The translations under genes were made by a program, and so were the position numbers. From Leucosporidium creatinivorum (Eukaryota; Basidiomycota; Microbotryomycetes; Leucosporidiales; Leucosporidiaceae), in contig BCKL01000017.1 in the NCBI GenBank assembly GCA_001600635.1, forward strand, positions 62,001 to 126,000: a stretch of DNA of 64,000 nucleotides, in the 5' to 3' direction. Below are positions 2,746 through 55,900 of the stretch, piece after piece; positions within the stretch are counted from its first letter, which is position 1; every line of letters begins with the position of its first letter. The notes under the pieces are model-generated. The model did not search any database, was not told the DNA's origin, and was given only the letters and a program-made list of their open reading frames with translations.

Positions 2746-2941
2746 CTGCAAGTGATGAGACGGGGCGTCAGCTTCTGCACTGCTCGGCAGCAGCTCTATT
2801 GGTAGCTTTGACTATCCTGCTCCCTCTCAGCAAGCTTCGTCCCCCGCTCGACCCTCTCGTCGTCTGCTCCGACTCTCCCTCGCAGTTACACGGGTACACG
2901 CCTACACAGGGATCCAACTTCACGAGCATACGTGGACTCAC
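2746..2941 (-). other. Probable 5' UTR intron of F-box gene 1
   Basis: On the minus strand AAG is followed by GTGAGT. A GCTGAC branch site and a CACTTGCAG acceptor follow, ending 42 nt upstream of the ATG. The signals match those of the coding introns in this window. Confidence 0.55.
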
Positions 2942-14090: not shown

Positions 14091-16380
14091 CTAAAGTTCA
14101 ATCAACTCCCCCACCCTCGCCTGTTCCTGCTCCTCCCGCTCCCTCTCCTTCTGCTCTCTCTCCCACGGCTGAGCGTTCGGAACACTAGGGAACTGATTCG
14201 GGTTGGGCAAAGGAGCGTTAGGGACGGAGGGGAAGGAAGAGGGGTAGTAGATCCCTGCTGGCTGCTGTTGTTGCTGTGGAGGGGCGTGTTGCTGCTGAGG
14301 GACGGCCGAGGGCGAGGGAAGAGGTGGAGGAGCCTGAGACTGAGCTTGAGCTTGAGCGAAGAAGGGGAGTGGTTGCCCGTGCTCTACCTGAGGCTGAGGC
14401 GCGGGCTGGAAGAAAGGAAGTGGGCGTCCGTACTCTGCTTGAGGGGGAGCGTAGGCGTACTGCTGTTGCTGGGGAGCGGTCGAGTAGGCTTGAGCGTGTT
14501 GCTGCTGGTGTAGCTGCTGGTAGGGAGCGGGAGGGTTGGGGGTAGGGTAGTAGGAGGCTTCTCGAGGTTGCTGTTGGGCGTAGGAGTGGGCGGGGTAGGC
14601 TGCGAGGGGGAAGTGAGGGAGAGCGGTCGAGGAAGGCGTTTACGACGAACAGGGAGGCGAGGCGAGGGAGACAAACAGGAGGGAAAGAAAGAGTCAGCTC
14701 CTTGTTCAGCATAAGACGGCCTGACAGCGCCTCCGCGAGCCTCAACGCTCACGCTTGCTCGGCGCAGCGCTACCCTGAGGTAAGTAGAACTCACCCTGCC
14801 TCCCCTCCAACAGCCCCCTATAAATCCTCGCCGCCTCTCCCAACTTGCCCTCCATCTCTCTCAAGATCTCCGCCCTCCTCTCCGCATCCTCGAGCCCTCT
14901 CTCCAATCTCGGTCCAGCCGCTCTGGCCTCCTCATACAGCCTCCTCTCCTTCTCGCCCAAACCGTGCGGAGGGGGATGCGAGAGCGTAGAGGAGAAGGAT
15001 TGAAGGGTGTGCGATTCCGAAGGGGTGAGGTCGTAGGAGGGGAGATGCAGGCGGGCTGAGGAGGGAGTGGGGGCGGGGGCGTAGGAGGGGTTCTGCGGAG
15101 GAGGAGAGTGGTAGAGAGAGGCGTAGGTGGCTGCTGGGCCTTCGTCGTTGTAAGTCGGTGCAGAAGGGGGAGGAGCAACGTCTCGAAGGGAAGCGGCGAT
15201 AGCGGCGGCGAGGTCGGGGTCGTCCTCCTCCTCAGCGACGGCGGAGGTGGGAGTCGATTTGGCAGGAGCGGCAGGTGCAGAGGAGGTGTAGGAAGGGTTG
15301 TACGCCGCTGAGGCGTTAGGCTTGCGCAGCTCGAACGCCGGACCCTCGACCGCCGAGCCGTTGACCTCGCGCAACGAGGCCTCGATCGCGCGCTGGAGGT
15401 CCTCATCCTCCTTGCTGGACGAAGCGCCCGACTTGCTCTTCCTATCCCCACTTCCATAACTGACCGTACTCCTCCTCCCCGGCATCTCGGGCCTGCCACT
15501 CCCTCCAGCACCCAAGCTCGAGCTCCTCTTGACCCCGGTAGCTCCCTTGCCCTCTTTGATCTTCTTGACGCAATCGTCGCACACTCGTACTGGTTCGGTG
15601 ATGCCGTAGTGAGGGAGAGGGGAAGTCTGGGAGGAGCATTGCTGATCAAAGACGGAGCCACAGTTGCGGCAGTGGTGCTTGCGATTGAAGGTGCTGAAAT
15701 CGGTCCGGCAGCGGGTGCAGTACGAGGCGTCGGTCCATTCGGGAGCCTGTGTAAGCGAGCGTTAGCGAGCTGAAGAGAGAAGGCCAAGCTCGACATCCGA
15801 ACTGACCGAGAGCGAGTCGACCATGGCGGCTGTGGCGGTAGGGTCCTTGGGAGGGAAGGGCAAACCCTCGCTCCTCATCCTCTGGTAGGCCGATACGAGG
15901 CTACTACTCCTCAAGCTCTCCTTCTGCTCAAACGCCGTGGCCCAATCCTGCAACTTGGCCAGGACGCGCTCCTTGACCTCACGATTGACCGTCGCTCCTC
16001 CTCTTCCCAACGACTCGAGATCCTTGGGCATCTCATCGTTAGCTACGACTTGAAGGAAAGGGGTCCCGCCGTTCTTGATGGCAATGTCGAGGCAGGATAA
16101 GGTGAGGAGTTGGACGTTTGGGTTGTCGTTGCGGAGGCGGCGAAGGAGGGATTTCGAGGCTTGTTGTGGGGGTAAAGCCGAGGAGCGGATCAAGTCGGCT
16201 AGGTGTAAGGAAGAGAGCAAGTCGGGAGGAGTAGAGGATGGTAAGAGGTCCGAGGTGGTCTTGTCTGTTTCGAGTGGGGGCGGGTCAGCTCTAGTCGAGG
16301 CTGTAGAGGGTACAGAGGTACATACCGAGTAGAGCATCAAATTCAGCTTGACCTGCTGAGGGTCCCCATAGAAACGACAT
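14091..16380 (-). CDS. VPS27: Vps27, ESCRT-0 subunit
   Basis: Exons 16326-16380, 15807-16264, 14795-15746, 14091-14599 encode 657 residues. Domains in order: VHS domain (about 10-165; LHLADLIRSS, LSCLDIAIKNGGTPF); FYVE zinc finger (about 172-235) with four CXXC-type pairs and the PI3P-binding basic motif RKHHCRNCG; two ubiquitin-interacting motifs (DEDLQRAIEASLRE and DDPDLAAAIAASLRD); a coiled-coil stretch (EKERRLYEEARAAG to EILREMEGKLGEAARI); and a Gln/Pro/Tyr-rich tail ending in a charged helix. This is the layout of Vps27/Hrs, which binds PI3P and ubiquitinated cargo on endosomes and recruits ESCRT-I. The last intron (14600-14794) is longer than average. It diverges from RAD7. Confidence 0.92.
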
Positions 16381-27017: not shown

Positions 27018-28397
27018 TCAGTTCTTGCCGGCGACCCCCTTCTCGGCGACCTCCTTCTCGAACGCCTCGACGACGGCGCGAGTCTCCAACAAGGGTCCCG
27101 TCTGGCCTATAACGAGCGCCATGACGTCGGCGGACATCATCAACAATTGCCATCCGCGCTCGAGGCGATTGGTAACCATCTGGCCTCCGAGTGCGAAGCC
27201 GAGAATGGGGAGCTGCGAAGCGTGGGAGGCAGGAGCAGAGATGAAGGCGCGGGAAGTTGTATGAGATGGAATACGTGCGAGGATGTAGGTGAGGGCTCAC
27301 GTTGTTCTTACGAGCAGCAGCCTCAATGGTGGCGAGAGCCTCCTGAAACACGGGCTCGGGGCCGTCAACGCCGCTGCGAAGAGGAAGAGCAAACGATCAG
27401 CGAGCGTCGAGCGGTTGTTTGCCATCGAGACACTGAGTTGCAAAGGCTTCCACGAGTGCGAAAGGCGAGGGAGAGAACTCGGCTCTGAGAGGTCGGGCTT
27501 CGAGGCTCAACTCACATGCTCAGACCCAGACTCATGCGCAAATCCCCTGTACCTATCATGATGGCATCAATACCCTCGACAGCGCAGATGGCCTCGGCGT
27601 TCTTGACTGCCTCGGCGCTCTCGACTTGAAGGATGATGGCCGCGTTCTCGTTGTAGACGTCGAGGATGGTCATGCCCTCGCGAGGGGTTCCGTCGGTGTG
27701 TCCAGGAATGGTAGCGAAAGGAGGGTAGGAGCGGTGCCCGAGAGGAGCGAAGCGGCAGTTGGCGACGACAGCCTTGGCTTGCTCGGCGGTCTCGGTGTGA
27801 GGAAAGACGACACCAGAGGCGGATCCATCGAGAGCCCACGATGACCACTCGGCTCCGTGCGTAGGGAGGCGAACGATGGTTAGGGTCGCGCCTTCCGAGT
27901 TGTAGTTGAGTGTCTTGATCATATCTTGGAGGAGGGTTGGCGAAAAGGGCGTATGCTCGGCGTCCAAGAAGATGAAGTCGCTGGAGACGTGGGAGACGTG
28001 GGGTAGAGACGTGTAGTAGTTTGATGATGTAGTAGTATAGTGTTGCGTTAGAACAAGATCAGCTACACGCTGTGGAAGAGGTAGGGACGTCTCAAGACTG
28101 ACTAGTTGAGCGTCGCCGAAACTCGAGCGACTTCGAGGGAGGGAAGCGAGACGCAGGTGCCCAAGATGGCCTTCTTGGACTTGGAAATGTCTTTGAGGAG
28201 TTGAAGGAACCTGAAAGGCTGGTTGAGCGAGTCTGCAGGAAGCCAGACGGGTCAGCGATTCGGTTCAAGCGCCGAGCCGGTCGCCGAAAGTCCGACTCAC
28301 TAGGCCTGTAGTCCATGACGTTCACTCCACCAAGAGGAGCGCGAGGGATGCCCATCATCTGAGCCACAAAGTCGCTACCGCGAGACGAGAGAGCCAT
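27018..28397 (-). CDS. HpcH/HpaI-family aldolase/citrate lyase
   Basis: Five exons: 28301-28397, 28103-28232, 27516-27980, 27301-27373, 27018-27212 (319 residues). Conserved blocks of the class II pyruvate aldolase family are present: GTCVSLPSLEVARVSA, NYDFIFLDAEHTPFSP (phosphoenolpyruvate/pyruvate-binding barrel), ASGVVFPHTETAEQA, the metal-binding glutamate in ILQVESAEAV and aspartate in IMIGTGDLRMSLGL. Bacterial members (HpaI, GarL) split 4-hydroxy-2-oxo acids to pyruvate and an aldehyde; the substrate here is unknown. The intron between the second and third exons (27981-28102) is unusually A/T- and C-rich with repeated CACGTCTC/CTACTAC units. Confidence 0.8.
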
Positions 28398-28798: not shown

Positions 28799-31700
28799 TC
28801 AGTCGCCGCCGCCTGCCCCTTCGGCGATGAGGAGCTGCTCCCAAATCTTGAGGTCGAGATCTCGCGCTCGGACAGGTTCTTGAGGCGAGCAAGGATAGTC
28901 AGCGAGCTGCTCGACCGAGGTTAAAAGTCAGAGAAGAACCGACTCACTCGACAAGTAAGAATCCATCCCGCTGGCGATGCATCTCTCTCGGTCGCCGACG
29001 ATGGCCGAGGCAGTGAGAGCGACGATGCGAATCTTGCGCTTGATGGGATCGTCGAGTAGGCGAATCTGCTTGGTCGCCTCGTAGCCATCGCACTTCGGCA
29101 TTTGGCCCTGCGATGAGAGAAGCGGGTCAGCTTTTGGCTCGCGCTGTGCAAGGGACCGAAAAGCTTACATCCATCAAGATGAGGTCGTAGTCTTTCGACT
29201 TGAGCGCCGCGACGGCAGCATTGCCGTCCGCAACAACCTCGACTTGATAGGTCAACTTGGTGAGGGTCCGAGTGACGATCTCGCGAATGAGCTCGTTGTC
29301 TGCAGCAAAGGTCGACGTGAGCTTTCTGTTACTGCTGATGAAGAGACGGGCGCCAGCTTACCTTCAGCCACTAGGATCCTCACGTCCTTTGACCTCCTTC
29401 TCCTCTCCGACTCCTCCAACAGCTCGACGACTTCTTCATTCGCCGACGCTTCCTTGCTAGTCTGATTCCGCTTCAGCAGAGGTGGAGCACTGTGTCGTAG
29501 ACCTGGTGCATCGGCGAAGGCGGTAGAAGCTGCGTTGAGCAGATGAGTCTGGGCTCGGCCGAGCAGAGGATCCTCGAGGGGCGCCTTAGCGAAGGGAACT
29601 TTGATGGTCATGGTCGTGCCGACGTCAAGAGCAGAGCTGAGGTTGATTGTGCCGCCCATGAGCTCGACGAGCTGCAGGGTCGAGTTCGGCAGACGATGGG
29701 AAGGGAACGGAGGAGAAAGGAGGAGATCAGCTCAAGGCTGGAGGTCGAGGCAGCGATGTAGAGTTCACCCTTCTCGTGATAACGAGGCCGAGTCCTGTTC
29801 CTCCGTACTCGCGAGCGGTCGAAGAGTCGGCTTGTCTGCAGTACGAGAGGACAAAGGTCAACGAGAGCGCCGAGCTAATGCAAGCGCCGAACGTACCGGA
29901 AGGGCTGGAAGAGGTTGGGAAGCACGGCAGGGTCGATTCCGCATCCAGTATCCTCGATCACGAAGGAGATGACCACCTCGTCTTCAGTCTCGGACTCTTG
30001 CCGAACGCGGAAGACGACCGACCCTTCTTTCTGCGAGAGGGGAGTAGAGCAAGGCGGGCAGCGAAGGCGCCAATAAGGAGAACGGTGTGCAGACTCACCG
30101 AGAACTTGATCGCGTTGGAGATGCCGTTGCTGACGCTCTGCCTCAGCCGAAGTAGGTCGCCGAAGAGAGGACCATCATACCAATCGCCGAGATCCTCGAC
30201 GAACTCGACGCGATTCTTAGTCGCCAAGGTCGAGTAGAGTCGTACATCGTCTACTACGGTGGCGAGCTTGAACTCCTTGCGCTCGAGAGTGAGCTCGTCG
30301 GCTTCGATCTTGGCGAGGTCGAGGACCTGCGGTAGGGGAGGCGGTCAGCGAAGGCTCATCAGCTACAGAGCTCAACAGGACTCACCAGTCCGATAAGCTC
30401 GAGGAGAATCTCGCCTGCTCGTTGGATCTTGGTGACGATCTCGCGATGCTCGGTCTGAAGTGTCGAGTCCTCCACGAGTAGCTCGGCGAGTCCGAGGATG
30501 CCGGCCACAGGGGTGCGAAGCTCATGCGACATGTTGCTGACAAAGACGGTCTTGACCCTTGAAGCCTCCTGCGCTGCATGCTCGGAAGCTTGCAGTCTAG
30601 CTTGCTCGAGATGCGAATACCGGAGGGCCTCCTCGCTCGTCCTGCTGGCCGTGACATCGCAGCCGACGAGGATCACTCCAGTCGTCTTGCCTCTTGGACC
30701 GACGAGGGGGCAGAGCGTGTACTTGTAGATGCGATCCTCCGGGGTTCGGCACTCGACGTCAAGGGTGTCCTGCGAAAGAGGATCAAGGTGAGCTTTCCCG
30801 TCGCTGGCAGTCTCGGACCGGTCTCAACACTCACCACATCGTCCTTGAAAATTCGTCTGCATCCCTCGGCGAGATGTTGGTCGGCGCAGACAGTCTGGAT
30901 GGGAAGGCCGACCATCTCGTCGTCTCGGCGCTCATGATCGAGCTCTCCTTCGTCGGGGGTGAGGGGCCGGACCGAGTGGCAAGTGCCGGAGAAGAAGGTG
31001 ATGATCTTGTCCTCGTCGACGCAGAAGAGGACGGTATCTATGTCGAGTGAACGAATGTCAGCGGCTGAGCAATGGCGCCGGCAGAGGGCGAGGTTCATCA
31101 GATTCAGGAGTGATACGCACGAGCAGAGCGCATAATAGCGTCGAGGTATTTCCTACTCTGCAGCGCCTCCTCCTTGGCCTGTACGAGGTTCTCGACGTTG
31201 GTGACCGTCGCAATCCATCGGCCGACCTCTCCGTCGGCATCGAGGAGAGGACGAGCTTCACTGTACGGCGGGGACGAGGTCAGCGAGATCGCATAGCTTC
31301 GATCAGACCTTGCCAAACTCACCACAGATGCCAGCGGTAGATGCCGTCCTTGCCTCGGACGCGATAGTCGTAGCTGACCGGCTCTTTCAACCTGGTTTGG
31401 CGTATCCAATGAGCGATGGCACCTAGGCGGTCTCGCAGGGTCAGTACCAGAAGGTGGCTAAGCTTAATCAGGCGCAAGAGAGCAGAGCTCACCTGGTACG
31501 TCGTCGGGGTGGAACGCCGAGATCCAAGTCGCCGGGTCGGCGCCGAGGCCCGTGTAGTCGAACCACATCTTGTTCCAGTACTCGGTCGATCCTGAAGCGT
31601 TTGCAACGTAGCAGATCTGTGGCAGCTCCTCGAGTAACCTGATGAGCTCGTTCTCGGGCAGGTCGAGTCCTCCTCCGAGCCGAGCGGTCTCGGCGGTCTT

Positions 31701-32351
31701 CTCCTCGACGCGCTGGAAGATGGTCTTGTACGTTGACGGGATGTTCTCCTCCTTGATTGGATCCGCATCGCGCTTGGGATGCGACGGTCTGACCTTGCGA
31801 GCAGAGCTGGCGGCCGACGAGCCCGAGGAGAGAGCGGGCGAGGAAAGAGGAGTCGAGGTCGAGGTGGAGGAAGGCTCAGGTGTAGCGCCCGAGGGAAACA
31901 AGTACGCCGCTGATGCCGAACGGAGGAAGAGGAGGGAGTAGCTGGCATCGCGCGAGCACGGGTTGGAAAGATCGTCCTCCGAAGGCCTCGACAAAATGCA
32001 GGCGACCTCTGCGATGTGGACGCTGCGCTGTCCTGGCGGTCCCGTCCAGTACTGCAGCAGAGCGCCTTTGCCAAAGTTGTCCTGTGTATCCTCCCGCTGC
32101 TTGTAGTCCTGTAACACGGCCTGCAATTGCTTCTCAGCGTCGCAATGTCGATCGGCGTTCTCCGAGAGGAAGTCGGCCGCTGTAGTCGTGTTGGACGCGT
32201 TGGGCGCAAGGCAGAGCAAACGTGCTGCTGCTGCGTTGCAGTAGGTGACGCGCAGATCGCTGGCGGAGAGCGAAAGCGTTGGAAGGGCGAATGCATCGAG
32301 CGAAGGCGGAGGCGAGGGAGGCGAAGCGGGTACATCGAGCGAGGGGCCCAT
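28799..32351 (-). CDS. Hybrid histidine kinase 1 (PAS-PAS-HisKA-HATPase-REC)
   Basis: Twelve exons: 31493-32351, 31323-31422, 31121-31260, 30835-31037, 30386-30769, 30099-30326, 29897-30030, 29769-29835, 29362-29671, 29169-29299, 28948-29107, 28799-28878 (931 residues, all phases consistent). Order: N-terminal weak PAS (about 20-70); PAS/PAC (about 255-375; ICYVANASGSTEYWN, YRVRGKDGIYRWHLC); another PAS (about 385-480); dimerisation/phosphoacceptor domain with H-box SNMSHELRTPVAG (His516); ATPase domain with N-box NGISNAIKFS, G1 DTGCGID and G2 GTGLGLVI; receiver with LVAEDNELI, phospho-Asp at LILMD (Asp852), Thr/Ala in VALTAS and Lys in KPVRARD. It is a soluble cytoplasmic sensor kinase expected to feed a Ypd1-type phosphorelay. 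The signal sensed by the PAS domains is unknown. Confidence 0.88.
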
Positions 32352-32755: not shown

Positions 32756-35700
32756 CTACGCCGAGACTCGTTCGGCGCCTCTGGCGGCCCGTTCGGCGAT
32801 GAGGAGCTGCTCCCAAATCTTGAGGTCGAGATCTCGTGCTCGGACAGGTTCTTTGAGTGAGGAAGGATGGTCAGCGAGGTCCTCGACCGAGCTCAAAGTT
32901 GGAGAAACCCGGCTCACTCGACAAGTAAGAATCCATCCCGCTGGCGATGCACCTCTCGCGGTCGCCGACGATGGCCGAGGCTGTGAGAGCGACGATGCGA
33001 ATCTTGCGCTTGATGGGATCGTCGAGTAGGCGGATCTGCTTGGTCGCCTCGTAGCCGTCGCACTTCGGCATTTGACCCTGCGAGAAGGACCGGTCAGCTC
33101 TCAGCCTGCGGATAGCGAGGAGGCGAGAAAGCTCACATCCATAAGAATAAGGTCGTAATCCTTCAGGCTGATAGCCTCGACTGCTGCGGCTCCATCGGGG
33201 ACGGCTTCGACTTGGAAGGAGAGCTTCCTCAGGGTGCGAATGACGATCTCGCGGATAAGCTCGTTGTCTATCAAAGCACAGTAGGTCAGCGCCGTAGCCT
33301 CGTCCGGTACTGCAGCTCTGACTCACCCTCAGCCAACAGAATCCGCACATCCTTCGACCGCTTCCTCCTCTCCGGCTCCTCGAGCAACTCGGCAATCTCT
33401 CCGTTCGTCGCCGCCTGACTCGATACCTTCCCATGCTTGCTAGCCGAGGTAGCGCTGTGCCGTAGACCGGGCGAGTCGGCAAAGGCAGTAGCTGGCGTGA
33501 CCAGCTCGGTCGGTGTAGCTGCTTCGGAGGTAAGGAGGCAGCCGTCGCTGGGTGCTTTGTTGAAGGGGACGGTGATGGTCATGGTGGTTCCGGAGCCGAA
33601 GGTGGAGGTCAGGCTAATTTGACCGCCCATGAGCTCGACGAGCTGTAGGATCGAGGAGGGACGGCGGAGGGAGGGAAAGAGAGGAGGAGTGGCCGGTCAG
33701 CTCTATCGGCCAGAAGGATGAGGGAACCAGGCAGTACCCACCCTTCTCGTGATGACAAGCCCAAGCCCTGTTCCACCGTACTTGCGAGCAGTCGAAGAGT
33801 CCGCTTGCCTGTGAGAGGAGGGGACGAGGGTTAGCTAGAGCGCCGAGCTACTAAGGCAAGCGCCGAACGTACCGGAAAGGCTGGAAGAGGTTGGGAAGCA
33901 CGGCAGGGTCGATTCCGCATCCAGTATCCTCGATCACAAAGGAGATGACCACCTCGCCTTCCGTCTCAGACTCTTGTCGAACGCGGAAGACGACCGAGCC
34001 TTCTTTCTGCGAGAGGGGAGTAGAGTAAGAGGGTCAGCGAGAGTGACTGCGACGGGGCTAGAGTGAGGAACGCACCGAGAACTTGATTGCGTTGGAGATA
34101 CCGTTGCTGACACTCTGCCTCAGCCGAAGTAGGTCGCCGAAGAGAGGTCCATCATACCACTCGCCGAGATCCTCGACAAACTCGACACGGTTCTTGGTAG
34201 CGAGGATTGAAAAGAGCCGAACGTCGTCCACGACGGTGGCGACCTTGAACTCTTTGCGCTCGAGAGTGAGCTCGTCGGCTTCGATCTTGGCGAGGTCGAG
34301 GACCTGCACAACAAAGAGATATCAGCGAAAGCTCGTCAGCTACAGAGCTTAGCGACACTCACCAGCCCAATCAGCTCGAGAAGGATCTCCCCCGCCCGTT
34401 GAATCTTGGTGACGATCTCGCGATGCTCGGCCCCCAGCGTCGGATCCTCGACCAGCAGCTCCGCCAGCCCCAAAATCCCAGCCACGGGCGTCCTAATCTC
34501 ATGCTACATATTGCTGACAAACACAGTCTTGACCCTCGAGGCCTCCTGCGCGGCATGCTCCGACGCCTGCAGCTTTGCCTGCTCGAGCTGGGAGCGCCGA
34601 AGAGCTTCCTCGCTCGTTCGGCTGGCGGTGACGTCCGAGCCGACGAGGATGACGCCGGTGGTCTTCTCCTCTATGCTGGCGAGAGGGCAGAGCGTGTACT
34701 TGAAGATGCGGTCCTCGGGCGTTGAGCATTCGACGTCGAGCGTGTCCTGCGAAGGCAAGCCGAGTTCAGCCTGCTACCTCGACTCTTCGAAGTGAAACTC
34801 TCACCAAGCCCTCCTGCAGAATTCTTCTACATCCTTCGGCGAGATGTTGAGCGGCGCAGACCGTCTGCATTGGCAGGCCCACCATCTCGTCGTCGCGACG
34901 CTCGCGATCGTGGATTCCTTCTCCAGCGTTAGGCGGCCGAAGGGAGTGCGAGGTGCCGGAGAAGAAGGTGATAATGTGGTTCTCGTCGATGCAGAAGAGG
35001 ACGGCGTCTGTGGCAAGAGGAAACAGTTTAGTGCTCGCCGACAGCGGCGGCGGGATGAGCAGAAGAAGCGAGACGTACGAGCAGACCGCATGATGGCGTC
35101 GAGGTACTCTCCACTCCTCAAAGCTTCCACCTTGGCCTGCACGAGGTCCTCGACGTTGGTGACGGTAGCAATCCAGCGAGTAATCTCTCCCTCGGCGTCG
35201 AAGATGGGTCGACCCTCGCTGTTGTGTAAGACGGGCGTCATCCGAATCCCTAGGCGAAGCACCTGTACTCTTAAACGCACCAGAGATGCCAGCGGTAGAC
35301 CCCATCCTTCCCCCGTACTCGGTACTGGTAGCTGACGAGCTCCTTCGAGACGACTTGACCTTCCCAATATGCGATGGCGCCTATGAGAAGTGTCAAATTA
35401 ACAATCAGAATCTCAGGGATATTCTTGCAGTAGACGCAACTCACCTGGCAGGTCATCGGGGTGGAAAGCCGAGATCCAGGTCTGAGGATCCGGTCCACAG
35501 CCCGTGTACTCGAACCACATGCGATTCCAGTACTCGGTCGATCCCTCGGGAGTAGCGACGAAGCAGATCTGCGGCAGCTCGTCTAACAGCCTCACGAGCT
35601 CGGTCTCGGGCAAGTTGAGCCCGCCTCCCTGCTGAGCCGTCTCGGCGGTCTTCTCCTCTACGCGCTGGAAGATGGTCTTGTAGTGCAGGCTGACGTCGTT

Positions 35701-35776
35701 CTCCTTGGGGAAGAGATGTCGGATCTTGGAGCGAGGGATGCCGTACTCCTCGGCAGCGTCTACGGCGGAGTAGCAC
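32756..35776 (-). pseudogene. Hybrid histidine kinase 2, tandem copy with stop codon at the H-box
   Basis: Twelve exons parallel kinase 1: 35445-35776, 35281-35380, 35079-35218, 34805-35007, 34363-34746, 34076-34303, 33873-34006, 33742-33808, 33327-33642, 33137-33267, 32918-33077, 32756-32850. Exons 2-8, 10 and 11 have the same lengths as in kinase 1; all junction phases match. PAS domains, ATPase motifs and receiver are present (ends KPVRARDLDLKIWEQL). Codon 34504-34506 is TAG where kinase 1 has TCG (Ser), directly before the catalytic His (SNM-stop-HEIRTPVAG). Translation would give only a PAS protein. The 5' end is unclear: the first exon has no start ATG and lacks the N-terminal PAS of kinase 1, beginning instead with AVDAAEEYGIPRSKIRHLF. 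No other lesion was seen, so the stop may be recent, an error, or read through. Confidence 0.8.
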
Positions 35777-36665
35777 CTTCAACACGATTTAACGATTATC
35801 ACGACCCTTACAGCGCTTCCCCTCCAATCTCGTTGAAGCCGTTCACGACGCGAGGCGGGAGATGTAGCTGAATTGGGCGGCCTGCCGTACATTTCGATGA
35901 GCTGATAAAAACTACAAGTTGATAAAACTATACGGAGGGCCAGTGAAACCTGCCCCTGCAGGGAAACTGTCCGCCCCGTGGTCAACGAGAGTAGCCGAGA
36001 CGAGAAGGGGAGCGAGACTGAGAAGGGGAGATGAGACCGAGCCAAGGGAGAGAGAGCCGAGAGGCGAAGGAAGTGTGAGATAAAGAGAGAAAAGAAGGGA
36101 AGGAGGGTGGGAAGTCAAAAACCGGCTCGATCTGAGAGATGGCGAGCGATTAGAGACGGTACAACAGGCCTAGGAGAATGAGCTGCGCGCACCTGAGAGA
36201 TGGCGAGCGAATACGAGTCCTTGATCAGGCTCGTGAGAGTCGACGGGCGACGATCTGCGACGAGGGAAAGGAAGTCGTGTGAGCTGGGCTCGGCTCGACT
36301 GAGAGGCTAGGAGCGCGCTGAAAGCTCACCTTTGCACTGTTGTGAAGGCGCGAAACAGGCAGAAAGAAAGTGCAGCGACCGAAACCAACGAGCGAGAGCT
36401 GTGGCGAAGGAGAGGGCGTCTAAGGTCAGCTCGAGCTCGCTCGGAGGCGGGCAAGAGGAGACGTACCTTGTCAAGGCAACTAGACTAGCTGCAGGATCCG
36501 ACGATGTCGACGAGAGGAGACGACGATGCGGACGGAGCTCAAAAGCTGTCGAGGGACGAGTTCGACTTGAGCTCCTCAACCTTGGCTCTCGGAGAACAAA
36601 GAACTCACTCGACACAAAGGCGCCGGCCTTGCGAGGGAACTTGTCTGAGAGGGAAGGTGGCGATC
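35777..36665. other. Unresolved region upstream of kinase 2
   Basis: About 890 bp. Minus-strand sequence has several convincing splice-like signals: GTGAGT at about 36605, CTGACCTTAG with a CCACAG end near 36400, and GTGCGC at about 36193. It also has an open stretch ending GRPIQLHLPPRVVNGFNEI at 35810-35913. These could be N-terminal exons of kinase 2 or a separate small gene. No combination gave a recognisable domain with a start codon, so I leave it unannotated. Confidence 0.35.
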
Positions 36666-38811
36666 ATGGCCGAGAGGCTGACTGATGTGATCGACTTGAT
36701 GAGGTACAGGCTGCAAAGGCAATGGCGCTGTCTTAGCTCGGAAGCCGGATGCGAGACGGGCTCGGCGATGGGAGAAGAAAGGGAAAAACCCGCCGGACTC
36801 GGAAGTCTCGCGGCGCGGGGGGAGAGAGGATGTAGGAGAGTAAAGCTCACTGAGTGCGATTGAACTCCTGCGCCAATTCCCTCGTGCCTCCTCCAAAGGC
36901 GAAGCCGATCACGTCCTTCCTACGACTCTTACGACCATTCCTCACGCTCAGGCGCACGAACCTCTAACGACAACGAACGACGACTCTCACAGCATCCCTA
37001 CGAGTACGAGCAGCACTATCAGCAAGCAGGATACCCCGACTCCCCTCCCATCGCCGCTTCTCGCTCCCTTTCCCCGCCGCGCTCGGGTTCGGCGCGCGAT
37101 TCGAACGCCCTGCCGGCCTTCTCTCGCTGGTCTCCTACATGGCAGTCGGGAGGATACAGCGGTGATGGGTGAGGTGTGTTCTGCGGACTAGTCAAGTACA
37201 CGAGCTGACCCGCGTCGACCTGAACAGCAAGGGCTACACAACCCACCGACCACCTCCCTCGGCGCTCGAAATGGAACCTCGCGATGCTCCTCCTCCGCAC
37301 CTCTACCCTCACCGTGCCGGCTCCGACGGGGGGCCTTCACATTCGACCGACGCAGACGACGAAGACGGCTCAGGCGGATGGGTGCCCGAAGCTCCCATCC
37401 GAAGCGAATGGCACGCAGCCGGCGGCGAGTATCGACATGGAGTAGGATACGACTCGCAGAAGGGTTCAACGAAGAGTGGGAAATGGTCGGAAGCCAAGAT
37501 TGCGGAGCGGATTAGGAAGCTGGAGAGGGAGTTCGGGAGCAGAGGAGCCGGAGAGGGAGATGGGCCGAACCGCTCGATTAAAAAACAACTCATCGCGGCC
37601 AAGGAGGAGAGGAGGAGGGAGAAGCATGAGCTGAGAGAGAGGAGCGGGGTTGATGGGAAGGGGAGGTTGGTGGTAATGGGTGCGAAGAAGCGAGCCGCGT
37701 TGAGATGGGCGCAAGGGCTCGGCGCGGTGATCGTTGGCGCTGCGAGTATCGGAGCGAGCTTTGTGAGTCGGCTGGTCTTTGAAAGAACCCTTCTCCATGC
37801 AATCCGCTTTTGCCGAGATGACAAAAGCTGACGTCCCTCTCCCTCTCCCTCTAGCTCACCAAACCCCTCACCGACCCACCGCCGAAAGGCTCGATCCCGA
37901 TCTACCTCCTCTACCTCCTTCCCTTCCTCTCCCTCTCTCTCACGCTCTACCTCTTCGCCATCCGACCCTGCCTCCAATCCCGCCGCGCCGCCGCCACCGG
38001 TTCGGCTCCTCCCAACCAATTCGTCGTCCCTCTCATCCAAGGCGGCCCAGGTCATCCCGGCGCAGGAGGAGGAGGGTGCTGCTGTTTTGGTAGTCGGAAG
38101 GATCCTCGACGACCGAGAGGAAAGGGAGGGAAGCACTACCAGCCAGGCGGAGGAGGGACGACCGTCAACCTTCTTGTCGACCCTTCCAACTTTCCTGCCC
38201 TCTTCCAACAGCAGCCTACACCTCTCAACGGATCGGCAAGAGAACAAGAGAAGCGGAGGAAACAGCGTCGGCGCAAGAGGGGGCGTCAGAAGCTATTGGA
38301 GAAGGAGGGCCGCGTAGACGGCGAGGGCGAGGGCGAGCAAGGGCTCATCTCCTCCTCTTCTTCCACATCTTCCTCCGACTCGGGATCCTCGGACGCATGG
38401 TCAGCGGGGGGAGGCCCTCGCTCCAACGCTCGGAAAGGGATCCTCTCGGCGGTAGCGCTGGAAGGCAGGTGGAGGGAAGCGAGGAGTTGGTTGCGCAAAG
38501 TCGCTTGGTGGGATGCTGGAGCTGGAGGACTGTGGTTGGCGGTTGGTGTGTATGCAGTCGGATGGGGCAAGAAGTGTAGCCCAGGAGGCTATCAGGGATT
38601 TTGGTGAGTTCGCCCATCTCGGGGCCGAGCTCAGGCAGGCCTCCCCTTCTCAGTGCTACAGTACTGACGCTTGACCAACAGCAACTTCTACAACACTTCA
38701 CTCGCTTTTGCTATCCTCCTCTCCGTCTCCTTCCTCCTCTCCCTCACTTTCGACATCCTCGACCTTCGCCGAACCCGAGCTCCTCCTCGACTTCGGCAGC
38801 AGCGGGTGTGA
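36666..38811 (+). CDS. Unknown four-helix membrane protein
   Basis: Exons proposed: 36666-36703, 36899-37168, 37228-37762, 37855-38603, 38682-38811 (573 residues). The last four exons are well supported by phases and splice signals; the first exon is only phase-compatible. The N-terminal 240 residues are polar and disordered (SYDSYDHSSRSGARTSNDNE, later basic KLEREFGSRG and KKQLIAAKEERRREKHE). Then come a hydrophobic pair (GLGAVIVGAASIGASF; YLLYLLPFLSLSLTLYLFAI), a long Gly/Arg/Ser-rich loop with CCCFG, and a second pair (GGLWLAVGVYAVGW; SLAFAILLSVSFLLSLTFDI) before a short basic tail. I do not recognise a family. It is probably an integral membrane protein with both ends on the same side. 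Confidence 0.6.
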
Positions 38812-39251
38812 AGGAGGAGAGAGCTCGGACCGTCGTGGACAGTGTGATTTATATTGTGTGTTGCCTACCTTGATACACCCTCACGCTCTTTAAGCTTTGC
38901 CATGATTTGCGAGCGAATCGGGAGAAGGCGCCGTCTGCGAAGCGAGTAAGAATAGGAGAGCAAGGGTTGTATCGAGTTCCGACTGTGCTCCGAGCACCTT
39001 AAAAGTATCGCTGAGGGTCCCCCTGCTCTGCTACACGCTCTTGTCGCCTTCTTCAACAGCTCGCTTTTGCGGACTTCGACTCAGCGAAGCCCCGCCCTTC
39101 CTTTGCTTCCTCGATCTCACTCGACTTTCCTCAATTCGACTCGCCGATCTAGGAAACAGCAGCAAGTGACAGCTATCGACTACAGCACCCTCTGCAACTT
39201 TCCCGCTCCTCTGCACCTCGTCAATTAAGCCCGAGAGCCGTCTCAGCTAAG
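38812..39251. other. Intergenic: promoter of the Zn2Cys6 factor
   Basis: About 440 bp; no supported exon. It includes the 3' flank of the membrane protein gene and the promoter of the transcription factor. Confidence 0.5.
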
Positions 39252-42200
39252 ATGGAGCCAGCTTCAGGCAAGGCTCGGCCAGGTAGGAGTCGTGCTGCTT
39301 GTTCTCAGTGTCGGGCGGTCAAGCAGGTAAGCTGAATTCTCTGCTGTGTATTCTCTTGTCTACTTGTTGGTGTGAAAGAGATGAGTTGGTCGCCATCGGC
39401 TGTTGATTGCTCGGGCGTGAAAGGGAGCGAGTCTCGTCGGTCTTGCAGGATAGCAGAGATCGGTTCGGGCTTGCCGAGCTGTACGGTTGAACCACCGACG
39501 ACGAATGGTGTCCAAGCTCCTCCCATACAGCTCGCAGCGACCCGCCCTCTTGCTTAGCTGACCTCTGCGCTCTCCTCCTAGAAATGCGACGGTTCGACTC
39601 GCGGCGGGGACTGCAAGCGCTGCCAGATCTACGGACTCGCATGTGACTTTGAAGGAGTCGCTACTCAGCCACCTCGCTCGCATCCGTCGCCTGCCCCCGC
39701 CAACGCCGCTCCCTCCACCTCCGCCGCGCCTGCAGCTCCAGTCTCGGCGCCCAGCAGGCCTAGCAACTTTATACCACCTACTCTCAAGCAGACGGATCCG
39801 AGCGTAGCTGCAGCGTGAGCTTTATTCCTCTGTTGCCGCGGCCCAGCCGTCTTCGTCGAGTGCTGACTTATTCGCTCCCTATTTGCAGACTACGAGAGAT
39901 CACCGAGCGTCTCAGGCAGATCGAGACAGGCCTGGAAGCAGATCGTCGCCGCGTTGGCAGTCATCAACACTACACCTCGACCGGCCAACCTCAGCACTCC
40001 TTCCCTTCCGCCGAATCCTCCTCCCCCGGCTTCCGCTCCACCGCCGATGCCTACCGCTCGTTCTCTCAAAGCAACGCCTCCAACAATCACCACGTCGAGA
40101 TGCCCGCCGAGTCCAACCCTCTGCAAGTCCTCGAGGCGACGATTGAGAAGATTGAGGCGATGGGAGTCGGCGAGAGTCCGCCGGATTGGAGGGGCGAAGG
40201 GGAGGGTCAAGATGGCCAGGAATCCAAAGAGAAGGAGCCTGCTGGTCCTGCGCCGCCAGATGCTATCATACGCAACCTGGTCTCGTTCGCCGACTGCGAG
40301 GCGGCGTTCGCTTTGTGAGTCGGCTGTCTGCTGACTGCTGACCGCGCCTCAGGTCTGAGTGCGCCACACGAACTGAACGCTGACTCTCCGTTACTGCTAC
40401 AGCTTTCACGAGCGTATCCAGCCGTGGATCTCGATCATGGGCAATCCCGACGACCGAGTACCGCTCCTCGTCCAAGCTCGCTCTCCCTTCCTCTTCCACT
40501 GCATCCTCCTCGTCACCAACTACTACAACACCTCGACCTCAGATCGAGCACGGGAGGTGTACCGCGGCCTCACCGAGATCGTCAACACGCTGCTCGCATG
40601 GCAGATCCTTGCGCCCGACCCAGCGCAGACGACGACTGATCTGGTGAGGGGATTGGTCCTCCTGCTCTACTACAAGCCAGTGCAGCATACCGCTCTGCAG
40701 GCCCGCGGCATCATCGAGCCAGGCCGAGTCGTCCATCTCTCCAAGGTCAACGCCCTCTCGTCGATGATGCTCCACGGTTCGTCACTTTCGCCTGCTAACT
40801 GGCGGCGCTGGCTGACGTCCCACTCTTCTGTAGGCCTCATCCACCGCACTGCCGAGCTCGTCGGTCTCCCTCGCGCCCCCGACAACTTCCTCGCCGCCGT
40901 GACTTCGCCTACCCCTCCGACAACCCAGATCCTCTCCGACCTCCGCGTCCACTACTGGCTCTGCATCGCCGACATCCATGGCTCCCTGCAGTCTGGTCGC
41001 GCCTCCGCGACCGACCCTACGCCAGCCCTGCAGACGACCAGGCTCTTCTCTTCGCTCAAGCAGCAGCTCTCGGATCCGAGGAGAGCGGCGATGCTGGAAC
41101 TGTACGCCATCGTGCGCACGCCCAAGGGCGCCAAGAACGCGACCAAGATCCGTTTGGACAACTTGGTCAAGATCAATGAGGAGCTTGATGCGTGGGAGGA
41201 GTACTGGACGCCGATTCTTGCAGGTGAGCTCGGCGTAGGTTGACGTGCAGCGGACGGAGCTGACTCGGCCTCGCTTACAGAGTCGCAAGTCAACGGAGAT
41301 CCTCTGGCGTACAGCGTCGTTTCCAACTTCCTTCAATTTGTCGTAAGTCGTCGACGCGGATCGTCGTTGCCGAGCCTCCCTGACCAGAGACTTTGCTCTC
41401 CGCAGACCTTCACCGTCAACTCTTCGGTCTTCACAAGATGGACGATCGAGCGTCAGAAGTCCCTCGACGAAGGTGGAATCGGACGACCGAAGCTGAGCGA
41501 GCAGGACTGGACTCGTGCGTATCGCGCCCTCTCTGTCGCCGAGCCGGAACTCACCACGCACATCTTCCACCAGACCTCCAACGAGCGATTGACGCCGCGC
41601 AAAAGACCATTTTCGCCGTCTCAGTGGAATCAACAGCCGACCAGACGCCGTTGCGAGGGACGAGGTGGCCCGAGAACGTCACTCCCTACAACCGCCCGCC
41701 GCTCACGCTCGACATGAAGACCGTCGAGGACTACCGCACAGCGCTCGACACTATGACGTGCATCGTGCGTTCAGAGGTTAGCTGCTTTCGGTCGAGCGTA
41801 CCGCTAATCCGCCTCCCTATGCAGAGCTTCATCTCAGCCCTCATCTTCCTCGTTCGCACTACTTCAGCAGGCATCTCCTCCTGCGAGATCCAATGCAAGA
41901 GGATTGACTACGAGTCTGGAGCCGGCATCCACGTCCCTGCACCTCTCCGCGACGGTAGCAAGCTCCCTCGCCTTCTCGAGCTCGGCGCTCAGTTTCTCTT
42001 CGCCGTTGCGCCGAATCGCCACCACCCCGCTCGCAAGCACTCAGTCCTGCTGCAGATGATTCGCGAGGCTGGATTGGGAGCCGAGACTCCTCACTCTGGC
42101 GGGTCGGGCACCACTCCCTCCACCGTGGACCTCACCTCCGCCGCTCCTCGCCTTCCTCCCGCGTCGGCTCCCCTGCCGCCGCTTCCCACGCTCCCATCCC

Positions 42201-44986: not shown

Positions 44987-47900
44987 CTACGACCTCAGCG
45001 TCGCCCTCTTCCTCTTCTTCATACCAGCCTCGATCTTGGCCCTGATGGCCTCCTCATCGGCCATGCCTCCGTCCTGCTCGTAGAAGTCGGCTGTACGAGC
45101 AGCCTCGTGCTGGCGGTGCAGGTACTTGAGTGCGGCGAGGTTGTAGCCGATGGTGTCCTGTGCGCGGTGGGATTGAGGAGATGTGAAAGGAGAAGGAGAG
45201 AGACAGCAAGGAGGAAAGAGGAAAGAGGAAAGAGGAAAGGAAGTCAGCGCGAGAGGCTCGGAAGGCGGAAAGCGAGGAAGGGAGCGCACCTTCTGCCTCT
45301 TGAGAGCGTCGCGAAGGTGGCCACGGAGCGACATCATGGTCTGACGGAGAGCGCGGGTGGCGACGATCTGAGAGTGGTGGGTGCGGAGGAGGAAAAAGAG
45401 GACCCGGGAGGTAAGGGTGATCTGCCACTCCTGTTGAATGGAAAGAGATGTCAGCTTAGAGTCTCACAAGCGAAGTCGACGAGAAACGAACCTTGTGAGC
45501 CCAGTAATCGAGGTGCTCAATGAGCTGGGTGACCTTGCCGAAGGGCAGAACAAGGAGAGCATCGTGCAGGCTCGCCGCCGGGATCTGCCTCGTGACCTTG
45601 AGGACGTACTCCTCGGGTCCGACACCTCCATACATCTGGAAGACGGCGTTCCGACTCGGTGCAGCAATCTTGGCCGCCATCTTGGGATCCAATCCGCGAA
45701 TCTCCTCCTCGTAGGCAGTGGTGAGAGCTCGGTCGTGAGCTGACAGGTCGAGGGCCTCCATGATGCGCTCTCCAGCCATGAGCGTCTCGGTGGTGGACTT
45801 GCTGACCTCCGTCGACTCGATGCCGCCGGCCTCGCCATCGACGCCGCCGTTCGAGGTGACCTTCATCTCATCGCGATCGCCTCGGCCGTTGGTGTTGGTG
45901 TCGTAGAGCTCCTCAATCTCGCGCTCGCGCTCCTCTTCCAAGAAAAGCTGGTAAAGAGGGAAGGGGTCAGCGCTGAGCAGGAGAGGGCGAGTTGAGGTCG
46001 ACATACAGGCTCGTCCGTCTTCTCCCAGATGCGAATCGACTTGTCGTGCGAACCGGTGACGACAAAGTTGCCGCGATGGGAGACGGCGAGGGCCCAAACC
46101 TCTCCCGAGTGGCCGGCGAGCTTCTGAATGCACTCGAACTTCGAAAGCGGGTGAAGTTGGTCAGCTCTACTCGGCGCAGAGGCTCTTGTTGAAGCGCGAC
46201 TCACCTTGTCTCCATCCCAGTACTTGACCATCTTGTCCTTGCCGACACTCCAGAAGAAGTGGGTTCCCTTCTCGAAGGCGACGCCCATGATGCTCTCCTC
46301 GTGAGCGAAGAGGGATCGGTGGCAATCTCCGAAGTCGAGACCCCAGATCTTGATGTTCTTGTCGGCCGAGCAGGTGATGATGAGCTTGTTGTCGTCCGAG
46401 ATGTCGAGCGCGAGGACGGGGAGCTGTTCGGCGGAGGGTCAGCCGGGGCGCAGCGGCGACTACTGAGGAGATCAGAAAACGCACCTTGTGACCGTAAAGT
46501 GAAAGGAAGAACTTGAGGGTATCGGAGTAGAAGACCTTAACGGTCGAGTCGAGGAGCGAGACGGCGAGCAGCTTGCCATCGGGCGAGTACTTGACGGCGA
46601 GGACATCGTCGGTCATCTTGAGCGTCTTGGTGTGCGCAACGGTCAGGACCTTGTTGACGGGCCCACCCTCGACCTCGGCGGCAATCTCTCGGACCTCGAA
46701 GTCCCAGAACTTGACATCCTTGTCGGCGGAACCGGTGACGAGACCTCGACCGTCGGGGCGGACGTGGAGCGACCAAAGAGGCCCGGTGTGGGCGGGGATG
46801 GTCTCAAGGAGGGCGGAGGAGGAGAGATCGTAGAGAAGGAGAGCGCCGGACTTGGTGCCGACGACGATCTGCGAGTCAAGGAGAGGTCAGCTGGAGCCCG
46901 GTAGTGAGACGAAGCTGAAGAGCTTACATGACGATCACCGGGTAGGAAGGTGCTGCAGATAGCATAGCCGCACTCCATCGTCCTCACGCACTTGGTCGTC
47001 TTCCTGTTCCAGATCTTGAGCGTGCCCTGGGCGGCCGAAGCGACGAGCTCGTCGTCGGATGAGACAGCGAGAGTGCGCACGTCTGAGCGATGACCGGGGA
47101 TGTCGAGAGTGTACTGCTTGATAGGTTCGATGGCGGGAGATTTGGATGAAGGAGGTGGGGGAAGAGAGTAGACTTCGAGCGAGTTGTTGGAGAGGGCGGC
47201 GAGGATCTGAGAACGAGCAGAGATGTCAGTGAGCGAAACGGGAGACGAAGCGACAGACAATGCGCTCACCTGAACATCTCCCTTGGTCTTCAGGGTCTCC
47301 GGCGCGAACGAGAACGACCGAATCTTGCCGCCGGCCCTCAGCACCGACCAAACGGCCAATCGATCCCTCCACTCTGGCTCTCCATCCTCGCCAACCGTAA
47401 TGGCCTCATCATCATCCTCATCCTCCTCGGTCGCCTTGCCCTTGCCCTTGCCATCCTTCTTCTTCTCCCTCTCCCTTCGCCGCCTCCTCGCCAGCTTCTT
47501 CCTCAACTCCTCCTCGGTCCTCAGGCGGAAGACATCGATGGTCTTCTCTCCCGAGTGGATGGCGAGGACAGGGAGGGTAGGGTGGAGGGTGACTTGGGTG
47601 ATGTTGTGGGTGTGGGAGGTGTTGGGGAGGGCGAGGGCGGCGATGGGAGAGATGGCTCGGCGGAGCTTGCCCTTGCTGGCCTCATCCGAGAGGACACCCT
47701 TGCGGAGGACCTCCTGATCGACCTTCCAGCATTTGACCTCGCCTTCTCCACCACCGGAGATGAGAACGCCCGACTGGTGGTCGTAGGCGAAGGACCAGGC
47801 CTCGCCGCGGTGGCCGACGACTGTCTCGATGCAGTGCTGGGTGGTGAGGTTGAAGAGCTTGATGAAGGTGTCTTTGGAGGAGGTAATCAGGTGGGTGGAG

Positions 47901-48512
47901 GGCTTCTTGGCCGCTTCTTCCTCGGCCGCCGAGGTAGTCGCCTCGTCCTCGTCGTCTTCTCCAGCGACGGCGTTCCCGCTGACAAACTCCAAGCCGGTGA
48001 TCTGGTCCCGGTGACCCCTCAATCTGAACATGCCGACCTCTCCAATCACGTCCCACACGATCACGTCGGTATCCTTGCTTCCGCTGGCGAGCCGAGTACC
48101 GTCCTTGTCCCAGCAGAGGGCGGTAACGGCGCTCTTGTGACCATTGAAGGTGACGACGACGGTTTGAGTGGGGGCGGACCAGAGGCGAATGGAGCCATCG
48201 GCGTAGCCTACAGCGAAGGCGTCCCAGTCGGTCGGGGAACGAGAGATGCAGGTCACGAGCGAGCGTAGGCCAGTCTCGTGCCACATGGCGTGCTGTAGGA
48301 GCACAGCCGATCGTCAGCTACATGCTCCTGCTTTGCGCTGGTATTCTCGTGGAGTTCACACTCACCTGCTCTCCCTTCTTGACATCCCAGACGAGGACGT
48401 CTTCGAGCGCCGGGACGTAGGCCTTCTTGCCGTCGTAGACCGAGTTGGAGGAAGCAGAAGCGACTACTCCGAAAGATTCTGTAGGTCCATGGCGCAGGTA
48501 GCTCTTGACCAT
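44987..48512 (-). CDS. UTP12: Utp12 (Dip2, WDR3), small-subunit processome WD40 protein
   Basis: Nine exons: 48366-48512, 47270-48292, 46928-47206, 46485-46868, 46205-46423, 46007-46138, 45492-45947, 45290-45430, 44987-45157 (983 residues, every intron phase 0). The start [20 protein letters not shown] is characteristic of Utp12. Two tandem WD40 propellers follow ([63 protein letters not shown]), separated by a charged Lys/Arg/Glu region ([17 protein letters not shown]). The C-terminal Utp12 domain (about 800-950; [29 protein letters not shown]) precedes a basic nuclear tail. Utp12 is part of the UtpB complex binding the 5' region of pre-rRNA with U3 snoRNP. Confidence 0.92.
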
Positions 48513-52912: not shown

Positions 52913-55900
52913 ATGTGCGGCATCTGCTTCGGCATTCGTACCAGGTGAGTACTCTTCTACAGCATCTGCACCGCATTAGCACCCTGCTCACCGCTGTGGC
53001 TGCTCCGCTCCCGCATCTTCCGCCAAACGCTCCGCAGCGCATCCTACGCATCCTCGGGCGCCTCACCTACAGACGAACCTTTGCCCACATCTCCGGCATC
53101 AGCTGCTTCCCCCTCCTCCAGCAGCACACACGAGCACGACCCCGACTTTGGCTTGACCTTTCCTGATGGCTCGAAGCCCGACTTGGGCTCTTACCTCGAC
53201 GCCAACGAGTGCTGGCGGACTCTGTGTGATGCAGTGAGGCCTCGAGGTGCGCTATGTTTTCCTCCAGCGCCCAGCTGCTCCGCTCGCTTGTCGGCTAATG
53301 CCTTCTTGTCTCGGCTTTGCCGCAGGCCCCGACGCGTCCAACTCGCTGATACGACATGTTCAAGTACGGCCAAAGCAACCTCATTGGGAGATGCGCTTCC
53401 ACGCGTCGATCCTGCACATGCGCGGAAAGCAGGTGACCGTGCAGCCCTTCACGGCGCCGAATGGAGACGTCTTCCTGTGGAACGGCGAGATCTTTGATGG
53501 AGTGGAGGTGAGTAGAACGTTTCTGATCACTCACGAAGCTTTATGATGCTTATCCTCGTACCTGCAGGTCGCTCCAACCGAGAACGACGGAGCCGCTCTC
53601 TTCGCTCTCCTCCTCCGAGAAGGGCCCTCCAACTTCTTCGCCGCGATCCGAAACGTCGAGGGGCCTTACGCCTTCATATACTATCAGGCTTTGAACCACC
53701 GCGTCTACTTTGCCCGGGACCCTCTCGGTCGCCGCTCCCTCCTCATGCACCGCCCGACGCCCGTGTCGCCGAGCCTCTTCCTCACGAGCAACGCGCCAAG
53801 CGTGAACCACCCGCTGAACGACTGGGAGGAGGTACCATGCGATTCCATCTTTGCGTACCATCTCTTGGATCTCAAGGGCAAGAACTGGGGGGTGAGCCGA
53901 TTCGCCGCTGAGACGTCGAACCGAGAGCGTTCGCTGATGCTGCTATATTGCTTCTCGCGCTTCGCAGGTGGATGGTCGACGAGGTGAGTGCCCAAGGTAG
54001 CGTTCTCTGCGTCGTTGACTTCTGACTGATCCCGTCGCCTTTCTCGCAGGTCTCTCCGCCTACCCTCGCTATCCCAAGTCGATGGGTCTGAGTCAAGACA
54101 TCCTCGTTCGCTTCGAATCCCCTCTCAAGCGCACCTCCCGGTTTGCTGACCTCTATCCCTGCAGATCTACCCCTTCGACCGCCTGCTCTCCACCCTGCCC
54201 CTCCCCGCCAATCTCCTCCCCATCGACAAAGCCGCCAGCCCACCCGCTCCCATCATCACCGCCCAGCTCCATCTCACCATCCAAGCCCTCCACCGCGAGC
54301 TCGAAGCGTCCCTCCGCAAACGCATCCTCACCGTCCCCGCCGTTCCACCACCACCGCAAGCTCGCATCGCCATCCTTTTCTCCGGCGGACTCGACTGCAC
54401 TACGCTCGCACTCATGGTCGACCGCATCCTGCCTGGCGCAGAGAGGATCGACCTCATCAACGTGGCTTTCGAGAACCCGAGGGTGGTGGAGGGCAAGGCG
54501 AGGGATGCAGCGGCGAAGGCTAAGGGAGGCAAGAAGAAGGCGCCGAAGGGAAAGAAGGGCAAGGGAAAGGAGCGCGAGGAGAATGGTATGGAGGTAGATG
54601 GAGGCGAAGCAGCGGCAGAGGAGGACGTGGCGATGGAAGATGGGGAGGGGCAAGGCGTTGGCGACGAGGCGACGACCGCCGACAACACGGACGCCGAGCC
54701 CGAGACCGAGTCTGAGGGCTTCTCGAAGGAAGCATCACCGGTCGCCGAGGCGCCACCGTCACCGACAGCCGAACCCGCCTGGCCAGATGCGGCTACTCAG
54801 CCTTCCTCGCCGATGGGCTCCAGCCCATCTTCGACGCCGGTGGACCCTACAGTCTACGAGGTACCGGATAGGCTGACGGGAAAGAAGTCGTGGCAGGAGT
54901 TGAGGAAGCTACGGCCGGCACGGACTTGGAACTTTGTCGGTGAGTAGACTCGGTCCCTTTGAGTATCGAGCCCCAAGCTAACTCCAAATTACTCGCAGAG
55001 GTCAACGTGCCGTACGAAGAGATGCTCGAGCACCGACCGAAGGTCATCGACCTAATGCGGTAGGTTCTGCGCTTCTCGGCTTCGGCTTTGGGAGCTTGCG
55101 CTGACCTCCTGCTTCCGATCGCAGGCCTCAAAAGACCGTGATGGACCTCGTGAGGCTTATCCTCCCCCGTATCTCTCACCTCGCTCGACATCTGACCCCG
55201 TCTGACCCTACAGTCCATCTCGATTGCCTTCTATTTTGCTGCTCGCGGCCAAGGACAGCTCGCTCCTATACCCTCCCCCTCCGCGACATCATTCACCGCA
55301 TCAGCACCAACACCCTACCACTCGCAGGCTCGCGTGCTCCTCTCTGGTCTCGGCGCCGACGAGCTTCTCGGAGGCTACGCTCGACACCGTCGCGCCTTCT
55401 TCGCCCCTCGGATTCCCGCTCCTGCTACCGCTAAACCTCCACCAACTGCAAGCTACTCCTTTGTCCACGGCACCACTGGCGCCGGTCCTCCCCCTCCCGC
55501 CGAAGGCAACAGCAACCCCCGAGCGCCGAACGGCAACGGCCTTCCTCCGTCAGGCGGCAACTGGTCTGCTCTCCTCGCTGAGCTGCAAATGGATCTTGAT
55601 CGCCTACCAGTGCGCAACTTGGGCCGAGACGACCGCATCATCTCGTATTGGGGCAAGGAGGTTCGCTACCCCTTCCTCGCTGGGCATGTCATCGACTTTA
55701 TCGCTCGGACGCCCGTGTGGATGAAGATGGACTTTAGGTTCGAAGAGGGTGTGGGAGATAAGATGCTGCTGCGCTTGCTGGCCAAGAGGTTGGGATTGGA
55801 GGTGGCGAGCTCGGAGAAGAAGCGGGCGATTCATTTTGGTGAGCATTCTCGTCCGGTTCGAAGATTGAGGGCGGTTGCTGACTCTCGGCTCCTCCGTTTC

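What the first reader, a model, noticed from the sequence alone, without database searches (positions are those of the whole stretch)
34504..34506. Stop codon exactly at the H-box of the second hybrid histidine kinase
In kinase 1 the phospho-acceptor helix reads SNMSHELRTPVAG. In kinase 2 the codon before the catalytic His is TAG, so it reads SNM-stop-HEIRTPVAG. I saw no other lesion in the remaining eleven exons, whose lengths and phases parallel kinase 1. A TCG to TAG change at the most critical site of an otherwise clean gene suggests very recent loss, selection for a PAS-only product, stop readthrough, or an assembly error.
Basis: partly seen in the sequence, partly recalled or inferred. 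Interest (0 to 1): 0.75.

Follow-up and report, generated by a model that had tools for sequence, protein, structure and literature searches.

The report
Recently broken duplicate fungal sensor kinase
One of two neighbouring copies of a fungal sensor-kinase gene has an early stop signal right beside the residue it needs to work; it looks like an ordinary duplicate gene that was lost very recently, although a reading error or a leaky stop has not been ruled out.

Summary
The stop is present in this assembly: minus-strand codon 34506-34504 is TAG, directly before the H-box His codon in exon 5 of kinase 2 (K2). All 13 other distinct H-boxes readable in this genome have serine there. K2's eleven other matching exons are open. 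But K2 is not otherwise clean: it lacks the N-terminal region (roughly 150-200 residues) that K1 shares with paralogs K3 and K4, and its start is unresolved. K1/K2 dN/dS is the same before (0.159) and after (0.166) the stop. Polarised by paralogs, the part after the stop changed no faster in K2 than in K1 (8 vs 12 changes, 11 unresolved). Under a simple neutral model that part was free of constraint for at most about 10% of K2's history. Best reading: very recent nonsense inactivation of a tandem duplicate. A selected PAS-only product is poorly supported. Base-call error or low-level readthrough cannot be excluded without reads, RNA or other strains. Interest is low to moderate.

The parts
34504..34506 (-). 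in-frame TAG stop directly before the H-box His codon of K2
34501..34503 (-). CAT codon of the phospho-acceptor His of K2
34363..34746 (-). K2 exon 5 (384 nt, phase 0 at both ends), carrying the stop as its 81st codon
32756..35776 (-). K2, hybrid histidine kinase: the part that can be modelled (12 exons; PAS before the stop; HisKA from the His on, HATPase_c and Response_reg after it)
35445..35776 (-). K2 first modelled exon; homologous only to the end of K1 exon 1; its 5' border and the start codon are not resolved
35779..35781 (-). in-frame TGA just upstream of K2's first modelled exon
28799..32351 (-). K1, intact tandem paralog (931 aa, 12 exons)
30524..30529 (-). Ser-His codons of the K1 H-box (TCG CAT)
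33809..34303 (-). K2 exons 6-7 and intron 7, unusually similar to K1 (exons 90% and 95%, intron 7 80%): likely homogenised
32918..33077 (-). K2 exon 11, 96% identical to K1: likely homogenised

Best explanation
K2 is a tandem duplicate of the intact hybrid histidine kinase K1. It lost or replaced its N-terminal region, was kept under purifying selection as a shorter kinase, and very recently acquired a nonsense codon next to its phospho-acceptor His. Shown: the stop, open frames downstream, serine in the other readable copies, no detectable relaxation downstream. Inferred: that translation ends there, that the mRNA (seven introns downstream) is probably degraded by nonsense-mediated decay (recalled), and that any product is a kinase-dead PAS fragment. 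The position beside the catalytic His is most likely coincidence.
For: Stop at 34504-34506 in an otherwise open series of exons. Serine at this position in 13 of 13 other distinct H-boxes (8 TCG, 3 AGC, 1 AGT, 1 TCC), read from 17 of 23 Pfam match rows; 6 rows showed no motif. dN/dS 0.159 before and 0.166 after the stop. After the stop 12 K1-derived, 8 K2-derived, 11 unresolved changes; at outgroup-invariant sites 7 vs 3. Neutral-model bound: a neutral spell of 10% of the K2 branch gives P = 0.016 (all exons) or 0.022 (exons 5, 8, 9, 10 only). The 5' difference fits a copy that was already modified.
Against: No reads, RNA or second strain, so an error in the assembly is not excluded. Absence of relaxation is equally expected if the downstream part is still translated. 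The smallest subset (exon 5 after the stop plus exon 6) bounds the neutral spell only at about 15%. K2's unresolved start makes even the upstream model uncertain, though an ATG at 35892 joined through an AAG acceptor remains possible, and intron 11 of both genes does end in AAG.
Confidence: 0.7

Rival explanations
1. Sequencing or consensus error: the true codon is sense and K2 is an ordinary second kinase.
For: A single base in an otherwise open series of exons; no relaxation downstream; K1 and K2 are very similar in places, which can mislead assemblers.
Against: Around the stop K1 and K2 differ at many synonymous sites (pS 0.69 and 0.65 in the windows at K1 residues 487-526 and 507-546), so mixing of the two copies is unlikely just there. 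K2 also differs at its 5' end.
Confidence: 0.14
2. Functional stop readthrough: most ribosomes stop, a minority insert a residue at UAG and make a low dose of full-length kinase.
For: Constraint after the stop equals that before it. The base after the stop is C, which recalled work links with leakiness. A zebrafish case of readthrough at a premature UAG is in print, and its abstract calls UAG the least efficient of the three stops (PMC5484112, listing with start of abstract).
Against: UAG-CAU is not the fungal UGA-CU motif; [quoted passage not shown] Seven downstream introns should trigger decay (recalled). Ser is the residue in 13 of 13 other readable H-boxes and in the best 80 of 560 bacterial relatives, so another residue there is untested in this family.
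Confidence: 0.05
3. A truncated PAS-only product was selected, for example as a sensor decoy or dimerisation partner.
For: The stop leaves the Pfam PAS region and ends the protein just before the catalytic His.
Against: There is no relaxation after the stop, and the part before it is if anything the faster one in K2. Start codon unresolved. Decay of the mRNA is expected (recalled).
Confidence: 0.05
4. RNA processing removes the stop: exon 5 skipping (in frame), use of the TAG as a 3' splice site, or A-to-I editing of UAG.
For: Exon 5 is 384 nt with phase 0 ends, so skipping keeps the frame; from the exon start to the end of TAG is 243 nt, also in frame. Premature-stop-correcting editing exists in ascomycetes (PMC7306014, passages).
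Against: Skipping removes the H-box itself. No branch-like CTRAY lies in the 91 bases ending at the TAG, whereas 15 of 22 K1/K2 introns hold one; 7 of 22 lack it, so this is weak. Editing would give Trp, found in none of 13 other H-boxes, and the 2020 review says such editing was not reported in basidiomycetes.
Confidence: 0.03

Closest known systems
Fungal hybrid histidine kinases (16 groups, PMC4965123, passages seen)
   Same: Sensor region with PAS, HisKA, HATPase_c and a C-terminal receiver; the review says large sets arise mainly by gene duplication.
   Different: K2 has a stop inside the H-box and lacks the N-terminal region of K1, K3 and K4. I did not assign K1/K2 to a numbered group.
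Recently inactivated duplicate genes (nonsense alleles, young pseudogenes; general knowledge)
   Same: Single disabling codon, intact tandem partner, conserved remainder.
   Different: Old pseudogenes show relaxed constraint and many lesions; not seen here after the stop.
DivL, a repurposed bacterial histidine kinase (PMC4211667, listing and start of abstract; PDB 4q20 among the matches)
   Same: A kinase scaffold that no longer works as a conventional histidine kinase.
   Different: DivL is full length with a substituted residue (recalled: Tyr for His); K2 would stop before the His.

Membership tests
Hybrid histidine kinase | HisKA, HATPase_c and receiver domain in one gene | tested here: met
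   In K1 whole, and in K2's DNA as two pieces split by the stop
Hybrid histidine kinase | one open reading frame through the H-box | tested here: not met
   TAG before His in K2; so K2 as read is not a working member
Pseudogene | disabling mutation | tested here: met
   TAG; also missing N-terminal region and unresolved start
Pseudogene | relaxed constraint after inactivation | tested here: not met
   leaves room only for a very young pseudogene
Pseudogene | no functional product | not testable with these tools
   no expression data held
Readthrough gene | coding constraint continuing past the stop | tested here: met
   equally expected of a very recent stop
Readthrough gene | known leaky stop context in fungi (UGA-CU) | tested here: not met
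   UAG-CAU; motif from PMC4207609 passages
Readthrough gene | stop conserved between species | not testable with these tools
Premature-stop-correcting A-to-I editing | edited residue (Trp) fits the family | tested here: not met
   Ser in 13 of 13 other readable H-boxes
UAG reassignment or suppressor tRNA | tRNA with anticodon CTA | tested here: inconclusive
   pattern search 0 hits, but my CAT-anticodon control also gave 0

The most novel reading that the evidence does not exclude
K2 is a dosage-limited kinase: the stop beside the His is a translational valve, so that mostly a PAS fragment and, by regulated readthrough, a little full-length kinase is made, which would explain why everything after the stop stays conserved.
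Probability: 0.04. Interest if true: 0.65.

Novelty: new member of a known kind. Interest (0 to 1): 0.2.

Why it matters
If real and recent, it is a clear case of a tandem sensor-kinase duplicate caught at the start of its loss. If the stop proved fixed across species with the downstream part still conserved, it would point to readthrough of a signalling enzyme at its catalytic motif, which would be surprising.

Tried and rejected
Mixing of K1 and K2 reads: thought unlikely at this spot because synonymous divergence there is high. TAG as a 3' splice site: no branch-like motif upstream, a weak test because 7 of 22 true introns lack it too. Suppressor tRNA search: inconclusive, because the positive control failed. 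K2 N-terminal remnant: a profile of K1, K3 and K4 found nothing in six unspliced frames of 35300-37200 (best E 0.13); a tblastn match to K1 residues 86-120 at E 0.13 was read as chance. K5's N-terminus did not align with K1's better than shuffles (56 of 500 reached the score), so it was not counted as sharing the region. The K3 and K4 N-terminal stretches were picked by eye from three-frame translations. Enumeration of a K2 start (donors GTRNG, introns 45-130 nt): five candidates, all from one ATG at 35892 with donor GTAAGG and GAG or AAG acceptors, none YAG. Since intron 11 of both genes ends in AAG, this start is not excluded. My first neutral simulation used a wrong observed count (24, which included changes shared with K1) and is replaced. 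Independent copies in prokaryotic genome contigs: only bacterial relatives returned. Literature searches for fungal hybrid kinases with premature stops (3 papers) or with tandem duplication and pseudogenes (213 papers with at least 3 terms, 10 listed) showed nothing on this gene in the listings; one listed paper concerns spontaneous mutation of an osmosensor histidine kinase in a fungus (PMC5732519, listing only). The organism was not identified; a search for red-yeast kinases gave 2 unrelated papers. Passages of PMC8510515 were seen: atypical receivers are about 3% in fungi; it did not bear on the stop.

Full report
What is there. The window lies in a 27.7-Mb, 63-contig genome. Short introns (58-99 nt in K1 and K2) and many hybrid-kinase matches point to a fungus; basidiomycete is my inference, not a test. 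On the minus strand sit two tandem kinases: K1 (32351-28799, 931 aa) and K2 (modelled 35776-32756), about 400 bases apart. Pfam finds PAS, HisKA, HATPase_c and Response_reg in K1. The K2 piece before the stop has PAS; the piece after it has HisKA from the His on, HATPase_c and Response_reg. At 34506-34504 K2 has TAG directly before the His codon.

Is it the only lesion? In the eleven exons that parallel K1, every intron has GT..AG ends and the frame stays open apart from this codon. The first exon differs. K1's first 150 residues resemble the N-termini of K3 and K4 (0 of 500 shuffles reach either score); K5 did not pass this test (56 of 500). K2 shows no trace of that region upstream in unspliced frames, and the pairwise alignment of K2 to K1 begins only towards the end of K1's exon 1. 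An in-frame TGA precedes K2's first exon. Within introns of 45-130 nt the only start found is an ATG at 35892, joined through GAG or AAG acceptors; AAG is used by intron 11 of both genes, so this start is possible but unproved. K2 is therefore not otherwise clean.

Family context. A 44-residue query found K2, K1, K3 and K4 (a second tandem pair on the same contig), K5 on another contig, and two weaker matches. A Pfam HisKA search gave 23 rows; in 17 an H-box motif could be read, which I take as 14 distinct sites because three pairs of rows show the same peptide at neighbouring places. One is K2; the other 13 all have Ser before His (8 TCG, 3 AGC, 1 AGT, 1 TCC). Six rows showed no motif. The best 80 of 560 bacterial relatives all have Ser too; these were the best matches, not a random sample.

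Age of the stop. K1 against K2: dN/dS is 0.159 over 308 codons before the stop and 0.166 over 415 after it (Nei-Gojobori, stop codon left out). With K3-K5 as outgroups (sites where at least two could be aligned), derived residues before the stop are K1 4, K2 10, unresolved 15, and after it K1 12, K2 8, unresolved 11. With at least one outgroup, before: 5 vs 16, 28 unresolved (p = 0.027); after: 13 vs 14, 26 unresolved (p = 1.0). So K2 may be the faster copy before the stop but not after it. At 140 informative codons after the stop K2 has 3 changes (the mirror count for K1 is 7 of 144). A neutral spell of 10% of the K2 branch would give 9.4 (P = 0.016). For exons 5, 8, 9 and 10 only it is 2 changes against 7.4 expected (P = 0.022). 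For exon 5 after the stop plus exon 6 the bound is weaker, about 15%. These are Poisson approximations that take half of dS as the K2 branch.

Homogenisation. Exons 7 and 11 are 95-96% identical, exon 6 is 90% and intron 7 is 80%, while introns 1-4 are 45-59%. This suggests gene conversion between K1 and K2, but not around the stop, where synonymous divergence is among the highest in the gene.

Mechanism. Translation should end after the PAS part. With seven introns downstream the mRNA is expected to be degraded (recalled knowledge of nonsense-mediated decay). The first in-frame ATG after the stop lies near the end of the HATPase domain (ELMGG), so re-initiation would not give a kinase. The simplest account is a young nonsense mutation in a duplicate backed by K1. 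Readthrough would need an unusual context: the fungal motif is UGA-CU, and UAG or UAA reduced readthrough there (PMC4207609, passages), although another abstract calls UAG the least efficient stop (PMC5484112, listing). Editing would give Trp, and premature-stop editing was not reported in basidiomycetes in a 2020 review (PMC7306014, passages). A selected PAS-only product does not fit the retained constraint downstream.

Verdict. Observation confirmed, interpretation partly supported. Most likely a very recent loss, with base error as the main rival that I could not test.

Noticed in passing
K2 33809-34303 and 32918-33077 vs K1: Exons 6-7 and 11 (and intron 7) are far more alike between K1 and K2 than the rest, as if by gene conversion.
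   Followed up: partly
G000:C17:393942-401181 (L004, L006, L009, L010): A second tandem pair of related kinases (K3, K4) lies about 300 kb away on the same contig.
   Followed up: partly
L010, about 1979-3142 (K4): K4's receiver region reads AEGDSTS where K1 has AEDNEL; could be an intron border or a degenerate receiver.
   Followed up: no
window, about 39250-39660, + strand: Cys-rich coding stretch interrupted by an apparent intron that looks like a fungal zinc-cluster transcription factor; read by eye, not searched.
   Followed up: no
window 14745-15761 -, 27515-28264 -, 46646-48313 -, 55196-56053 +: Neighbouring genes by Pfam (10 of 131 listed frames scanned): FYVE with ubiquitin-interaction motif, HpcH/HpaI aldolase, WDR3-like beta-propeller, asparagine synthase.
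   Followed up: no
window 34363-34746: K1/K2 synonymous divergence is highest around the H-box (pS 0.69) while replacement divergence is low there.
   Followed up: no
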